Assembly (NCBI RefSeq): GCF_005239225.2 | Contig: NC_133301.1 | Span: 6,535,157 to 6,599,156, forward strand | Direction: 5' to 3' | Origin: Populus alba | Taxonomy: Eukaryota > Streptophyta > Magnoliopsida > Malpighiales > Salicaceae | DNA length: 64,000 nt | Part shown: one piece after another, positions 8,354-19,791 of the stretch | Layout of the letters: every line of letters begins with the position of its first letter | How positions within the stretch are numbered: position 1 is the stretch's first letter | The notes under the pieces: generated by a model | The model's database searches: none | Told to the model about the DNA's origin: nothing | The model's input: only the letters and a program-made list of their open reading frames with translations | Translations under genes and position numbers: made by a program

Positions 8354-9556
8354 TGACACGACCAAAAGCTTGATGTCTTCTCTCAAGTGCAGGAGTGTTA
8401 AAGTAATAAATAACTCTGCAAGACTGGGGTCGAACCACAGAGAGGTTAATTGTATAAATTATAAACAACAAGACAACAACAACAACAACAACAACAATAA
8501 TAACAATAATAGTAGTAATAATAATAATAATACTCAGTACGTGGCGTTGTTACACCTGAGAATGATCTAAAAGATCGGGTCACAGGTTTCCAGCCTATAT
8601 ACTAAGTTTATGAAAATATCAAAGAGATATATTATATAATATAAACAGAATGTAAATAATAATAATAATAACAGTAATAATAGTAGTAATAATAGTAGTA
8701 GTAGTAGTAGTAAAAGAAGATGAAGATGAAGAAATTAATGAGAATTTTGAGATCAAAGATTAATGTAAGGATTAAACAATGATAAAAATAAACGTCAAGG
8801 TTACAGGATCCACTAATGGTACTTCAAACAAGTATAGTATAAACTCTTATTATTCAATTGGAAACCACACATAAAGGAGGTTCCAATCAGATTATAAATT
8901 GTTAACATGATTACATTAGTTATCTCATTCGAATAAAGCTAATACTTGTAAATGTTGGCAGGTATTCATGATTATAACTTATGTTAACAACAAATCAAGT
9001 TCCTTTTATAGCTCAGGTGTCGGTTATACCATACAGTATGGGCTATGAAAGTACCAAGTATTTGTTGTACCAAGTGTTATACAACATAAATCTAGATTAA
9101 CCATTTAACAAGCAAAGTATTAAAAGTGAACAAGATAACAAATATAAAACATGTTAGTATCCAACGTTAAGGTCCATGTTAAGTTTATATTATACTTATT
9201 CTTACACCATTAGTGTACCCTTTTCACCTTGACATAATTAACTTAGCTAAACATAATGAAAGAAAGAAACATAAATGATCCAGATAAGAACATAAATGAG
9301 AAAGAAGTTAACTAAGTAAGGGAAAGGAAATGAAGTGCATAAACTTGATATTAATGAAAGCAAAACATAAGCAATACAAAGAGAGAAAGCAAGAGCATGA
9401 ACTTGATCTGGAAACCAAGATGCCTCAATACATGGTAAGTGCCTCCTTTTATAGGCCAAAATTTGGAACTATTGATTTGTTTACTAATTGATGAGTGGGT
9501 GGCCACATCTTGACTTGGTGACAATCCTTATATTCTTGTCTGAACAAGACATCATT
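8354..9556 (-). repeat. 3' LTR of element A, truncated
   Basis: It matches the 5' LTR at 18365-19791 closely from TGACACGACC onward, including internal AAC/AAT/AGT triplet arrays near 8475-8535 and 8655-8715 that differ in length from the other copies. The LTR start, about 230 bp, is missing: the sequence changes at 9556/9557 into Ty3 reverse transcriptase. The polypurine tract and LTR start are therefore lost. Confidence 0.85.
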
Positions 9557-9602
9557 GCTGTGAAGGAGTTTTCATGGACTTGCGAGTTTTTATAGAAGGT
9601 TT

Positions 9603-11627
9603 GTGAAGGATTTTAGTACTATTGCTGCACCTTTAACTGAAATTGTTAAAAAGTCTGTTGGATTCAAATGGAATGATGAACAGGATAAGGCTTTTAATTT
9701 GTTGAAAGATAAACTTTGTTCGGCACCTGTTTTAGCTTTGCCAGACTTTACGAGAGCTTTTGAAGTTGAATGTGATGCGTCAGGTATTGGTATAGGAGCT
9801 GTGTTAATGCAGGATAAAAGGCCCATTGCGTATTTCAGCGAAAAACTTAATGGGGCAGCTTTGAATTACCCTACATATGACAAGGAGCTCTATGCCTTGG
9901 TAAGAACTCTAGAGACGTGGCAGCATTACCTGTGGCCCAAGGAGTTTGTGATACATTCTGATCATGAATCATTGAAGCACTTGAAAGGGCAAGGTAAGTT
10001 GAGTAGGAGACATGCCAAATGGGTGGAATTTATTGAAACATTTCCGTATGTGATCAAGTATAAGCAAGGAAAAGAAAACATTGTGGCTGATGCACTTTCG
10101 CGCAGGTATGTTCTTTTATCTACTTTGGATGCTAGATTTCTAGGATTTGAACACACAAAAGAATTGTACAAGGATGATAGTGATTTTGCTAATGTTTACA
10201 ATGCTTGCGAAACTTCGGCTTTTGGGAAGTTTTATAGACTTGATGGATATTTGTTTAAAGAGAGTCGATTGTGTGTTCCATTAAGTTCTATGCGTGAATT
10301 GCTTGTACGTGAAGCACATGGGGGCGGTTTGGTGGGGCATTTTGGTGTTGTTAAGACTTTGGATATGTTGCATGAGCATTTTTATTGGCCTAAAATGAAA
10401 AGGGATGTGCAGCGCATATGTGATAAATGCATAACTTGTAGGAAAGCAAAGTCTAGGACTCAACCACATGGCTTGTACACCCCTTTACCTCTACCTAAGG
10501 AGCCATGAGTAGACATTTCGATGGATTTTGTCTTAGGTTTACCTAGGTCAAAACGGGGTAGGGACTCAATCTTTATAGTTGTTGATAGGTTTTCAAAGAT
10601 GGCACACTTTATTCCATGTCATAAAACCGATGATGCCACTAACATTGCTGATTTGTTCTTTAGGGAGATAATATGACTTCACGGGGTCCCTAAGAGCATT
10701 GTTTCTGATAGAGATGTTAAGTTCCTTAGCTATTTTTGGAAGGTGTTATGGGGAAAATTGGGTACTAAACTGTTGTTTTCAACTACTTGTCACCCCCAAA
10801 CAGATGGACAAACCGAAGTAGTTAATAGGACCTTAACACAACTTTTGCGTGCTGTTATTCAAAAGAACTTAAAGAATTGGGAAGATTGTTTGCCATTTAT
10901 AGAGTTTGCATATAATCGTAGTGTGCACTCTACTACTGAATTTTCACCATTTGAAATTGTGTATGGGTTTAACCCTTTAACTCCAATGGATTTGATTCCT
11001 TTGCCTATTGATGAAAGGGTTAGTTTGGATGGTAATCGTAAAGCACAGGTGGTGAAGACACTCCATGAGAGTGTGCGGCAACAGATTGAAAGGAGGAATC
11101 GTGTGTATGCGACCAAAGCCAATAAGGGGCGCAAACATGTTGTCTTTCAGCCTGGCGATTGGGTTTGGGTACATATGCGCAAGGAGAGATTTCCGGCCCA
11201 TAGGAAATCAAAGCTACAACCACGAGGAGATGGGCCATTTCAGATCCTTGAGAGGATCAATGACAATGCTTATAAAGTTGATTTGCCAGGTGAGTATGGT
11301 GTTAGTGCTACCTTTAATGTTTCTGATCTTACTTTGTTTGATGTAGGTGATGATTCGAGGTCGAATCCTTTTGAAGAGAGAGGGGATGATGCGGATCAGC
11401 CCAAAACCAAGCGTAATCATGCCAACGATCCATTGGAGGTACCAATTGGGCCAATCACAAGAGCTAGGGCAAAGAAGCTTAAAGAAGCATTGAATGAGCT
11501 TGTTCCGAACTTATGGAGCAAGATGGACCTAGAAGGGCTTGGGACATTTAAGGAGCATGAAGAACAGCCTTTAATTCATCTAGTTCATGTCCAAGAAGAG
11601 CCCAATTCATGTGGAACAAGGGGTTGA
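9603..11627 (+). pseudogene. Ty3/gypsy pol: RNase H and integrase, two nonsense codons
   Basis: One continuous frame of about 674 codons. In order it shows the RT end (KDFSTIAAPLTEI), RNase H with ECDASGIGIGAVL, DKELYALV, HSDHESLKHL and ADALSRR, then the integrase HHCC region with CDKCITC, the catalytic core (MDFVLGLP, SDRDVKF, and TEVVNRT with the third acidic residue), and a C-terminal GDWVWVHMRKERFP module. The tail reads GPITRARAKKLKEAL; no chromodomain is obvious. Breaks are TGA at 10506-10508, where a Trp is expected after KEP, and TGA at 10674-10676, where an Arg is expected. Both fit single C/G-to-T/A changes. The terminal stop codon at 11625 is formed by the first three bases of the LTR. 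Confidence 0.92.
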
Positions 11628-12368
11628 TATTTCCGGCCCAATACCAGCCTTGTTAGGCTTGTTTTATTTCCTAATGCTACAAGGATAAAAAGCCAGCAAT
11701 TTATTCTCCTAATTAAGTAAGGAAGTTGGCCATATCTTATTCCTAAAGAGGGGAGGACTATTTAATGTTTTTCCTAACATAGGAAGGAAAGTAATTAAAT
11801 CAGCAACAAAGAAGGAAATTTATCCAAGCTAATCAAGGACATCAAAGGAAAGGGGGTAGCAACACAAATTTGATTCTAGCATATTTAGGATGGTAATTTT
11901 CGGATTTTTATTATTTTCTTCTTAGTTTTTGGGTTATTATTACTTATTTGGGTCAATTGTAAGTGGGCTTCATATAAGTCCACCTAAGGGGGGTCCATTA
12001 GGGTTTCTTTAAGTTTAGAGTCAGTATAAATAGAGGCATAACCAAACATGTAAGGTTACGCAATTTTCATATCAATAAACCTCTTTGTTGCACTTGTTGT
12101 GTGTTGGTGGGATAATCTCCCTTCCTTGGTTCTCTAAACAACTGAAAACGACTTATCGAAGAACAACTGGCTTCGTGGCATCATCTTTATACTTCTCGTT
12201 TGCGAATCAATATTCGTTGGGTGAGGGTTTACGTTTCCAATAGTGCTGGTGCCTAGGTACAAGTTATCTTTGTGTCACACTCCTATCAAACCTGATTTAC
12301 TTGGCTTTCCGGGAATTGGTGTCTTTGCGTGTGGGTTGCGTGACCACGTGATCACGAGGTTCGCATCA
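11625..12368 (+). repeat. LTR1-family 3' LTR
   Basis: The purine tract CAAGGGGT is followed by TGATATTTCC at 11625. The LTR ends TTCGCATCA at 12368, 744 bp. A TATAAATAG box lies near 12025 and an AATAAA-like CAATAAAC near 12075. The last 30 bp carry ACCACGTGATCACGAGG, containing a CACGTG and a CGTGATCACG palindrome also found at the end of the otherwise different LTR2. Confidence 0.9.
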
Positions 12369-18358: not shown

Positions 18359-18364
18359 AAAACT

Positions 18365-18702
18365 TGACACGACCAAAAGCTTGATGTCTTCTCCGAAGTG
18401 CAGGAGTGTCGAAGTAATAAATAACCTGGCAAGACCGAGGTCAAACCACAGAGAGGTTAATTGTATAAATTATAAACAACAACAACAACAACAACAATAA
18501 TAACAATAATAGTAGTAATAATAAATAATAATACTCAGTACGTGGCGTTGTTACACCTGAGAATGATCTAAAAGATCGGTTCACAGGTTTCCAGCCTATA
18601 CACTAAGTTTATGAAAAAGATCAAAGATATATATTATATTAATATAAACAGAATGTAAATAATAATAATAATAACAATAATAATAGTAGTAGTAGTAGTA
18701 GT

Positions 18703-18744
<42 letters not shown>

Positions 18745-19791
18745 AAAAGAAGAAGAAGATGAAGAAATTAATGAGAATTTTGAGATGAAAGATTAATGTA
18801 AGGATTAAAACAACGATAAAAAATAAACGTCAAGGTTACAGGATCCACTAATGGTACTTCAAAACAAGTATAGTATAAACTCTTATTATTCAATTGGAAA
18901 CCACACATAAAGGAGGTTCCAATCAGATTATAAATTGTTAACATGATTACATTAGTTATCTTATTCGAATAAAGCTAATACTTGTAAATATTGGCAGGCA
19001 TTCATGATTATAACTTATGTTAACAACAAATCAAGTTCCTTTCATAGCTCAGGTGTCGGTAATACCATACAGTATCGGCTATGAAAGTACCAAGTATTTG
19101 TTGTACCAAGTGTTATACAACATAAATCTAGATTAACCATTTAACAAGCAAAGTATTAAAAGTGAACAAGATAACAAATATAAAACATGTTAGTATCCAA
19201 CGTTAAGGTCCATGTTAAGTTTATATTATACTTATTCTTACACCATTAGTGTACCCTTTTCACCTTGACATAATTAACTTAGCTAAACATAATGAAAGAA
19301 AGAAACATAAATGAACTAGATAAGAACATAAATGAGAAAGAAGTTAACTAAGTAAAGGAAAGGAAATGAAGTGCATAAACTTGATATTAATGAAAGCAAA
19401 ACATAAGCAATACAAAGAGAGAAAGCAAGAGCATGATCTTGATCTGGAAACCAAGATGCCTCAATACATGGTAAATGCCTCCTTTTATAGGCCAAAATTT
19501 GGAACTATTGGTTTGTTGACTAATTGATGAGTGGGTGGCCACATCTTGACTTGGTGATAAGTTTGGCCATATCTTTGTCCTTTCACTTTCAATACTTAAA
19601 CTCATCAACCAATCCTTTCATTTATGTGTTAAGCCTGCATTTAAGATGAACATTTATCATAAAATTAAAGGTATCTTATATTATCTAGATATGTTATTAT
19701 AAAACATGCTTAAGTTAAGGAGTTATTGATACTTCAAAGTGCAAAATGATGATATAAAACCTTAATAAACATGCACTTTTAAGTACAATCA
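18365..19791 (-). repeat. 5' LTR of element A, complete
   Basis: It runs on plus from TGACACGACC (18365) to AAGTACAATCA (19791), 1427 bp, i.e. TGATTG...CGTGTCA in element orientation. The LTR start is confirmed by the same edge in other copies (28182 on plus; 53046 on plus reading, reversed). Triplet microsatellites lie at 18478-18535 and 18655-18745. The second is an AGT array interrupted once and much longer than in the 3' LTR. Confidence 0.88.

What the first reader, a model, noticed from the sequence alone, without database searches (positions are those of the whole stretch)
8354..19791. A retrotransposon with a two-gene cargo: a cysteine-rich, virus-like gene next to a cytokinin-activating LOG gene
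Element A keeps LTRs, primer site, gag and protease and carries, downstream of pol and in sense, an intact 182-codon cysteine-rich ORF and a LOG retrocopy. Seen directly: the order, the orientation, the LOG motifs (GGGSLGLMG, PGGLGTLEE) and the CX2CX4CX3C cluster. Known: LOG enzymes raise active cytokinin; some betaflexivirus cysteine-rich proteins suppress RNA silencing, and one from a carlavirus is reported to promote host cell proliferation. Inference: the element may have gained genes that keep host cells dividing or unsilenced, which would favour transposition. I know of no described plant LTR element with this pair.
Basis: partly seen in the sequence, partly recalled or inferred. Interest (0 to 1): 0.92.

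Follow-up and report, generated by a model that had tools for sequence, protein, structure and literature searches.

The report
Jumping gene carrying virus-like and hormone-type genes
A plant genome that is very likely white poplar holds hundreds of copies of a retrotransposon with two extra genes side by side, one resembling a plant-virus cysteine-rich protein and one of the cytokinin-activating LOG enzyme type, and both read as genes kept by selection that likely help the element spread, although subfamilies lacking either gene have also multiplied.

Summary
Element A (8354-19791, minus strand) is an LTR retrotransposon with PBS, gag, protease and an integrase remnant, then in sense an intact 182-codon cysteine-rich ORF (CRP) and a LOG frame broken by one stop. 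It is neither chance nor misassembly: in the host genome (416 Mb; two contig lengths equal those of Populus alba) 335 sites have CRP cysteine cluster and LOG start at fixed spacing, control 0, and 26 of the 30 best CRP loci carry LOG. CRP-LOG fusions are annotated in Citrus, Acer and Rhamnella. Both genes show constraint (pN/pS 0.14-0.28 and 0.32-0.36); the integrase remnant of non-autonomous copies is near neutral, with wide intervals. CRP passes Pfam cut-offs for carlavirus-type proteins but has other cysteine spacing. Corrections: LOG domains in Populus and Citrus LTR elements were already reported, and the poplar element LOG keeps the catalytic Arg/Glu but has replaced three adenine/prenyl-pocket residues, so cytokinin activation cannot be assumed. 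Subfamilies without LOG (66 sites) or most of CRP (92 sites) amplified too, so neither gene is needed in cis. New: the pair, its spread across rosid orders and its selection signature.

The parts
18365..19791 (-). 5' LTR of element A
   Evidence: Direct repeat of 8354-9560 (93%); TG start at 19791 and CA end; the same LTR flanks other copies
18341..18358 (-). Primer-binding site TGGCGCCGTTGTCGGGGA (one base from the tRNA-Asp type, recalled), followed by a candidate splice donor GGGGAG|GTAAAT at about 18339
   Evidence: Sequence; the same motif with C at one place found as exact pattern in 5 of 10 copies examined. Splicing is inferred, not shown
17655..18131 (-). gag ORF
   Evidence: Pfam Retrotrans_gag 47.8 bits
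16647..17294 (-). gag downstream part (separate ORF in this copy)
   Evidence: ORF, no Pfam hit; like part of the gag-protease ORF of another copy, by eye
15571..16509 (-). Protease ORF; its 3' part (about 15571-15861) is RNase H end / integrase N-terminus
   Evidence: Pfam Asp_protease_2 24.8 bits, cut-off 24.3; aligned to the L001 integrase ORF
15158..15520 (-). Integrase remnant after an internal deletion shared by 20 of 30 loci
   Evidence: Pfam Integrase_H2C2 36.1 bits; deletion from about residue 146 to 386
15089..15096 (-). Candidate splice acceptor TTTGCTAG about 150 nt before the CRP start
   Evidence: 28 of 30 loci have it at -149 to -156; L001 has TTTCTCTGCAG about 140 nt before its CRP start. 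Use untested
14396..14944 (-). CRP: intact 182-codon cysteine-rich, viral-NABP-like ORF
   Evidence: Viral_NABP 24.8 bits (cut-off 23), Carla_C4 23.7 bits (cut-off 20.9)
13506..14159 (-). LOG frame of 217 codons with one in-frame stop (codon 156)
   Evidence: Lysine_decarbox 106 bits; PDB AtLOG3 2a33, E 4e-47
12370..13400 (-). Non-coding region between LOG and 3' LTR with a conserved GGACATTGAGGACAATG..TTGGGGGG motif and 65-bp tandem repeats
   Evidence: motif shared with L001
8354..9560 (-). 3' LTR of element A (its start is lost)
   Evidence: LTR-LTR K2P 0.030 over 1160 sites
9563..12369 (+). Another gypsy element's 3' half nested in A (RNase H, integrase, SH3_Tf2-1 domain, LTR)
   Evidence: Pfam; copies at 34592-36611 and 58113-60146
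8033..8353 (+). 5' part of the LOG frame of copy B, into which A inserted
   Evidence: 80% to 14174-13839
19798..20379 (+). 3' part of LOG and downstream region of copy B
   Evidence: 91% to 13837-13514 and 78% to 13456-13200
20386..20961 (+). Fragment of a third LTR of the same family, inverted relative to LOG copy B

Best explanation
Element A is one decayed, non-autonomous copy of a high-copy Ty3/gypsy retrotransposon family, in a host that is very likely white poplar, that carries a virus-like cysteine-rich gene and a LOG-type gene between integrase and the 3' LTR, and the two likely work as accessory proteins that help the family multiply. Shown: the gene order in many copies, constraint on both genes, and annotated proteins holding the pair in two further plant orders. 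Inferred: a spliced, env-like messenger RNA starting at the 5' LTR and joined to the acceptor 150 nt before the CRP would express the CRP, and LOG would come from the same or a read-through RNA. The CRP, with a basic stretch directly before a four-cysteine cluster, is predicted to bind nucleic acid and to blunt the silencing that meets element RNA. LOG, with the catalytic Arg/Glu kept but the base pocket changed, is predicted to cleave a nucleotide 5'-monophosphate, perhaps no longer the cytokinin precursor, and so shift cytokinin or nucleotide pools in favour of replication. Both products would act in trans, which would explain how copies that lost RT/IN, LOG or most of CRP could multiply alongside complete ones.
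For: Linkage: LOG lies in sense behind CRP in 26 of the 30 best CRP loci, the window's own included; 335 sites with CRP cysteine-cluster motif, spacer and LOG start, control 0; 465 sites with the longer CRP-side motif and LOG start, control 0, some of them from the CRP-deleted class. Family LTRs lie on both sides in 10 of 10 copies read at larger scale. Selection (pN/pS, bootstrap range): in 20 non-autonomous loci LOG 0.32 (0.19-0.56; 16 loci aligned), CRP 0.15 (0.08-0.26), protease 0.20 (0.10-0.35), integrase remnant 0.81 (0.49-1.55) and 1.01 (0.53-2.96); in 10 loci with integrase throughout LOG 0.32, CRP 0.14, integrase 0.21. In eight loci not chosen on protein score, CRP 0.28 and LOG 0.36 in the 4 of 8 with full CRP. 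CRP against L001 from another plant element: dN/dS 0.235. Other plants: CRP-LOG proteins in Citrus, Acer and Rhamnella; gag/protease plus CRP in P. euphratica; LOG with a gag/protease-like stretch (by eye) in two Xanthoceras proteins. CRP passes Viral_NABP and Carla_C4 cut-offs; 30 and 29 of the 30 aligned members, window copy included, match these models at E<=0.01. Catalytic Arg99/Glu122 kept in 23 of 23 own LOG frames.
Against: LOG-less copies share one deletion junction (66 sites) and copies lacking two thirds of CRP share another (92 sites), so both genes are dispensable in cis. Of the eight loci only 4 have full CRP and 5 near-full LOG. The CRP ratios are biased low because those loci were chosen by CRP protein score. 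In the last 62 codons of CRP, full copies give 0.82 (few differences) and the remnants of CRP-deleted copies 0.62, so that segment shows no relaxation after deletion. The bootstrap ranges of integrase remnant and LOG overlap slightly. LOG sequences of the two classes are mixed (distance within 0.0264, between 0.0266; nearest neighbour in the other class for 7 of 23), so constraint in non-autonomous copies may be inherited from complete ones. His97, Lys100 and Glu125 of the LOG pocket are kept in 0 of 145 listed poplar-type proteins; the fused Acer, Citrus and Rhamnella proteins each lack at least one catalytic, motif or pocket residue. The carlavirus cysteine spacing occurs in 0 of 120 listed CRP relatives. 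The AlphaFold model of CRP is poor (pLDDT 54). No expression, silencing or enzyme data were available.
Confidence: 0.5

Rival explanations
1. CRP and LOG are passengers: sequences captured long ago that travel with the element without helping it.
For: LOG-less (66 sites) and CRP-deleted (92 sites) subfamilies amplified; LOG frames with stops in 5 of 23 full-length alignments; pocket residues replaced.
Against: pN/pS 0.14-0.36 against 0.8-1.0 for the integrase remnant in the same non-autonomous copies; 18 of 23 LOG frames are free of stops; proteins with the pair in Sapindales and Rosales besides the Malpighiales host, a long time for free passengers.
Confidence: 0.2
2. CRP is not a captured viral suppressor but the element's own nucleic-acid chaperone in the env position; the likeness to carlavirus proteins comes from the virus taking it, or from convergence on a zinc cluster behind a basic stretch.
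For: CRP occurs with integrase and without LOG in L001, so it is probably the older component; cysteine spacing differs from the carlavirus one; Pfam scores are only just above cut-off for the window copy.
Against: Two viral Pfam models match, with best E-values of 1e-8 and 2e-7, one over a stretch wider than the cysteine cluster (profile positions 115-202 of 227).
Confidence: 0.3
3. Nested insertions or misassembly merely placed a LOG pseudogene and a viral-like ORF next to each other in this window.
For: The region is densely nested, with two N gaps elsewhere in the window.
Against: Same order and spacing in 25 further loci of 29 and at 335 sites, and in annotated proteins of other plants.
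Confidence: 0.01

Closest known systems
LOG (YgdH) domain in Ty3/gypsy elements of Citrus and P. trichocarpa (PMC9289625, section 12 and passages read; it cites Steinbauerova et al. 2011, not read)
   Same: A LOG-family domain inside gypsy LTR elements, in the same genera; very probably the same family or lineage.
   Different: What I read names no neighbouring CRP, gene order, copy-level selection or pocket residues. The pair CRP plus LOG did not turn up in the listings of my searches (several listings were capped).
[quoted passage not shown] PMC7264820, first of three parts read; PMC6317226, section 13 and passages read)
   Same: Position and orientation of the extra genes; candidate splice signals.
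   Different: Some of those are described as having transmembrane domains; CRP and LOG match other families. PMC6317226 counted extra ORFs of at least 250 codons (passage), so 182- and 217-codon ORFs would be missed.
Orchid Ty3/gypsy elements with an RNA-demethylase domain (PMC9289625, section 12)
   Same: A gypsy element that took up a domain also found in some plant RNA viruses (the viral part is recalled).
   Different: Different domain; found there only in Phalaenopsis orchids.
Carlavirus cysteine-rich nucleic-acid-binding protein (passages of PMC8839810)
   Same: Basic stretch directly before a four-cysteine cluster; Pfam Viral_NABP and Carla_C4 matches.
   Different: C-X2-C-X4-C-X3-C instead of C-X2-C-X12-C-X4-C; lives in a retrotransposon.

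Membership tests
LTR retrotransposon (Ty3/gypsy) | LTRs, PBS, gag, PR, RT-RH-IN in gypsy order | tested here: met
   Element A lacks RT; one family copy has PR, RVT_1, RNase H, then H2C2 and rve in that order; LTRs on both sides in 10 of 10 copies
Athila lineage | Non-chromovirus, one RNase H only (no second one as in Tat), RT phylogeny | tested here: inconclusive
   No second RNase H and no chromodomain by Pfam in the three ORFs of one copy scanned; non-Met PBS type; RT phylogeny not run; no ATHILA ORF-1 match. The Athila name rests on recalled gag features
Viral_NABP / Carla_C4 | Score above Pfam gathering cut-off | tested here: met
   24.8 (cut-off 23) and 23.7 (cut-off 20.9) bits
Carlavirus CRP | C-X2-C-X12-C-X4-C cluster (PMC8839810) | tested here: not met
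   0 of 120 listed relatives; C-X2-C-X4-C-X3-C in 85 of 120
Carlavirus CRP | Silencing suppression, nuclear action | not testable with these tools
   needs experiments
LOG phosphoribohydrolase | Lysine_decarbox domain and PGGxGTxxE motif with catalytic Arg/Glu | tested here: met
   106 bits; Arg99 and Glu122 in 23 of 23 own frames, 138 and 141 of 145 listed database proteins
LOG phosphoribohydrolase | Adenine/prenyl pocket His97, Lys100, Glu125 as in CgLOG/AtLOG3 (PMC4979012) | tested here: not met
   0 of 23 and 0 of 145 keep any of the three; three Xanthoceras proteins keep all
LOG phosphoribohydrolase | Releases free cytokinin from its 5'-monophosphate | not testable with these tools
   needs an enzyme assay
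Env-like extra ORF (sense, between pol and 3' LTR) | Position and orientation; spliced message; transmembrane domain | tested here: inconclusive
   Position met; acceptor motif in 28 of 30; splicing and membrane spans not tested

The most novel reading that the evidence does not exclude
A plant retrotransposon lineage took an RNA-virus suppressor gene into the env position and later added a LOG gene, which in poplars evolved a new base pocket. The two form a long-lived accessory module, acting in trans against silencing and on nucleotide or hormone pools, and have been kept by selection through hundreds of copies and several rosid orders.
Probability: 0.3. Interest if true: 0.88.

Novelty: new variant of a known kind. 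Interest (0 to 1): 0.68.

Why it matters
How plant retrotransposons counter silencing is largely open. Here a viral-type nucleic-acid-binding gene is kept under constraint in a retrotransposon found in several rosid orders, next to a hormone-enzyme gene whose substrate pocket has changed in poplar. Because complete, RT-less, LOG-less and CRP-less subfamilies coexist in one genome, expression, small-RNA and insertion data can be compared between them, which makes the role of each cargo gene directly testable. It also warns annotators: many 'LOG' and 'viral nucleic acid binding' genes in poplar, and in plant-contaminated metagenomes and MAGs, are probably element genes.

Tried and rejected
Fold comparison of CRP: the model was too poor (pLDDT 54), so no fold search was run. 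PDB sequence search with the CRP family: 0 hits. IMG/VR scans for CRP and LOG: no relatives. Reading the GGACAATG..TTGGGGGG motif as the polypurine tract was rejected, because the 3' LTR begins about 1 kb further on in other copies. LOG of A against B was not used for selection, as B is frameshifted. The LOG tree (13 rows, only three non-element rows) separates element LOGs from Arabidopsis LOGs with moderate support (81/89); too thin to settle one or several captures. The search for the host's own LOG genes (and whether they have introns) did not complete, so 'retrocopy' rests on recall that plant LOG genes have introns. LTR distances are rough where aligned sites exceed one LTR length. Rows dropped: pairs need at least half of the codons aligned (LOG: 120 of 190 non-autonomous pairs); only 23 of 26 LOGs aligned in one piece and were used; eight of a planned twenty loci (every fifth row of the first 100 listed, all exact-match sites on contig C1, then thinned).

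
Full report
WHAT IS IN THE WINDOW. The window is a nest of plant repeats. On the minus strand, 19791 to 8354, lies an LTR retrotransposon: 5' LTR, a PBS one base from the tRNA-Asp type (recalled), gag (Retrotrans_gag), protease (Asp_protease_2), an integrase remnant (H2C2), then in sense an intact 182-codon cysteine-rich ORF (CRP) and a 217-codon LOG frame with one in-frame stop, then the 3' LTR. 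No reverse transcriptase was found between protease and integrase remnant. The 3' LTR has lost its start, next to the 3' half of another, plus-strand gypsy element at 9563-12369. The element sits inside the LOG frame of a second, decayed family copy (8033-8353 | 19798-20379), and a third family LTR fragment lies at 20386-20961. LTR divergence of A is K2P 0.030 over 1160 sites.

HOST AND COPY NUMBER. The window's assembly has 416.35 Mb in 96 contigs. The CRP search had 1671 first-look candidates, of which 150 were scored; 133 of these 150 show no stop inside. A 26-nt motif just behind CRP occurs at 1054 sites with up to two mismatches, its reversed control at 0; this counts copies with and without a full CRP. 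A 20-nt part of it, followed after 170-198 nt by the first eight bases of LOG, occurs at 465 sites, control 0, again including CRP-deleted copies. A stricter pattern (13 nt of the CRP cysteine cluster, then the spacer end, then the LOG start, each exact) occurs at 335 sites, control 0; this is a lower bound for copies with the pair. Among the 30 best-scoring CRP loci (the window's own included), LOG follows in sense in 26; the other four, L003, L011, L015 and L031, share one deletion that leaves the last codons of LOG. Ten of the 30 have integrase throughout, some with frameshifts or stops; 20 share the internal deletion seen in element A. Ten copies were read out to about 10 kb upstream and 6 kb downstream of CRP: 10 of 10 have family LTR matches on both sides, 7 have gag, 5 an exact PBS match, and 9 LOG, one LOG-less copy having been included on purpose. 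One copy scanned in pieces has protease, RT, RNase H and integrase in gypsy order. LTR distances of the ten run from 0 to 0.18 (rough for some), so part of the family inserted recently.

SELECTION. Mean pN/pS among copies, with bootstrap ranges over codons: in 20 non-autonomous loci, protease 0.20 (0.10-0.35), CRP 0.15 (0.08-0.26), LOG 0.32 (0.19-0.56; 16 loci aligned), but integrase remnant 0.81 (0.49-1.55; N-terminal part) and 1.01 (0.53-2.96; C-terminal part). In ten loci with integrase throughout: integrase 0.21, CRP 0.14, LOG 0.32. The 30 loci were picked by CRP protein score, which biases CRP low but not LOG or protease. Eight loci taken from the list of exact spacer matches on contig C1 (part of a planned twenty) gave full CRP in 4 of 8 and near-full LOG in 5 of 8; over all eight the ratios were 0.41 for CRP and 0.32 for LOG. 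In the four with full CRP the ratio was 0.28 for CRP and 0.36 for LOG. Against my reading: over the last 62 codons alone the four full copies gave 0.82 (very few differences) and the CRP remnants of the other four 0.62, so that segment shows no relaxation after deletion. Those other four share a second deletion junction, from integrase into CRP, found at 92 sites genome-wide. The LOG-less junction occurs at 66 sites. LOG sequences of the two classes are intermixed, which suggests template switching, so constraint in non-autonomous copies may be inherited from complete ones.

OTHER PLANTS. The CRP query found 526 proteins at E<=10 (best 120 listed), with names from Populus, Xanthoceras and Acer where a name was given. 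The joined CRP+LOG probe found single annotated proteins holding both, CRP before LOG, in Citrus x changshan-huyou (P0241, with a further LOG piece in front), Acer yangbiense (P0243) and Rhamnella rubrinervis (P0245); Populus euphratica P0244 joins gag/protease and CRP (Pfam hits just below cut-off); Xanthoceras P0242 and P0247 join LOG with a stretch that looks like gag/protease by eye. In my own scan the CRP part of P0241 is below the Pfam cut-off and those of P0243 and P0245 give no viral hit; their relation rests on the alignment and, for P0241 and P0245, on precomputed domains. Acer, Citrus and Xanthoceras are Sapindales, Rhamnella is Rosales, Populus is Malpighiales. A contig in a bacterial MAG record (L001) reads as plant contamination: an element with integrase and an intact CRP (Viral_NABP 34.1 bits; Carla_C4 20.4, just under its cut-off), no LOG found by tblastn, and the same conserved sequence just behind CRP and around the GGACAATG motif. 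So CRP is probably the older cargo and LOG was added between CRP and that motif; loss of LOG in L001's lineage is not excluded.

WHAT THE TWO PROTEINS ARE. CRP passes the cut-offs of two viral Pfam families; 30 and 29 of the 30 aligned members match them at E<=0.01. It has a basic stretch directly before four cysteines, as carlavirus CRPs do (PMC8839810, passages), but with C-X2-C-X4-C-X3-C spacing (85 of 120 listed relatives) and not the carlavirus spacing (0 of 120). It is therefore like, not shown to be, a carlavirus CRP. LOG aligns without gaps to AtLOG3 (PDB 2a33). In CgLOG, Arg99 and Glu122 are the proposed catalytic residues, Met96, Lys100 and Glu121 form the adenine site, and Met96, His97, Lys100, Glu125 and Trp129 are named for the prenyl site (PMC4979012, passages). 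Poplar-type element LOGs keep Arg99 and Glu122 (23 of 23 own; 138 and 141 of 145 listed), but none keeps His97, Lys100 or Glu125 (mostly Ser, Leu/Met and His instead); three Xanthoceras proteins keep all three, while the fused Acer, Citrus and Rhamnella proteins each lack at least one catalytic, motif or pocket residue. A constrained enzyme with a fixed, altered base pocket points to a changed substrate; cytokinin activation is not safe to assume.

MECHANISM. A candidate splice donor directly behind the PBS (also in the 5 of 10 copies with a PBS match) and an acceptor TTTGCTAG 149-156 nt before the CRP start in 28 of 30 loci, with an acceptor-like TTTCTCTGCAG about 140 nt before the CRP of L001, suggest an env-like spliced message. 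I infer that CRP binds element or silencing nucleic acids and that LOG cleaves a nucleotide monophosphate, both acting in trans. Trans action fits both the constraint and the spread of RT-less, LOG-less and CRP-less copies. None of these steps was tested.

NOVELTY. LOG (YgdH) domains in LTR elements of Citrus and, with a filter off, P. trichocarpa are in print (PMC9289625, section 12 read). The CRP, and the pair, did not turn up in searches of the open PMC library, of which I saw listings (some capped) and the papers named here; subscription papers, including Steinbauerova et al. 2011, were not read. PMC6317226 counted extra ORFs of at least 250 codons, which would miss both. Verdict: a new variant of a known kind, with real surprise in the virus-like partner, the shared selection and the altered LOG pocket.

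Noticed in passing
window 30721-38016 and 56654-64000: A 7.4-kb inverted duplication, 96% identical, reaching the window's right end.
   Followed up: no
window 39291-47343: Direct and inverted repeats with several related ORFs; the one at 40691-41293 has an IQ calmodulin-binding motif (Pfam IQ 26.9 bits), so this may be an amplified host-gene fragment.
   Followed up: partly
L001 (DAIEQH010000041.1, GTDB 'Candidatus Nomurabacteria' MAG): A bacterial MAG record holds a 3.3-kb contig that reads as a plant retrotransposon with integrase and CRP: contamination.
   Followed up: yes
L053, L054, L056, L058: A second non-autonomous subfamily lost integrase and two thirds of CRP at one junction (92 sites); one of the four members read (L053) keeps an open LOG frame.
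   Followed up: partly
window 13119-13248: 65-bp tandem repeats behind LOG contain about 30 nt like the 3' part of the CRP gene (90% to L001 2174-2203), perhaps a trace of template switching.
   Followed up: no
window 1-1593, 20960-26449 and 54089-56660: Non-LTR retrotransposon-like fragments: parts repeated at 95-98%, with an RVT_1 ORF at 22616-22954 and a DUF4283 ORF at 25124-26449.
   Followed up: no
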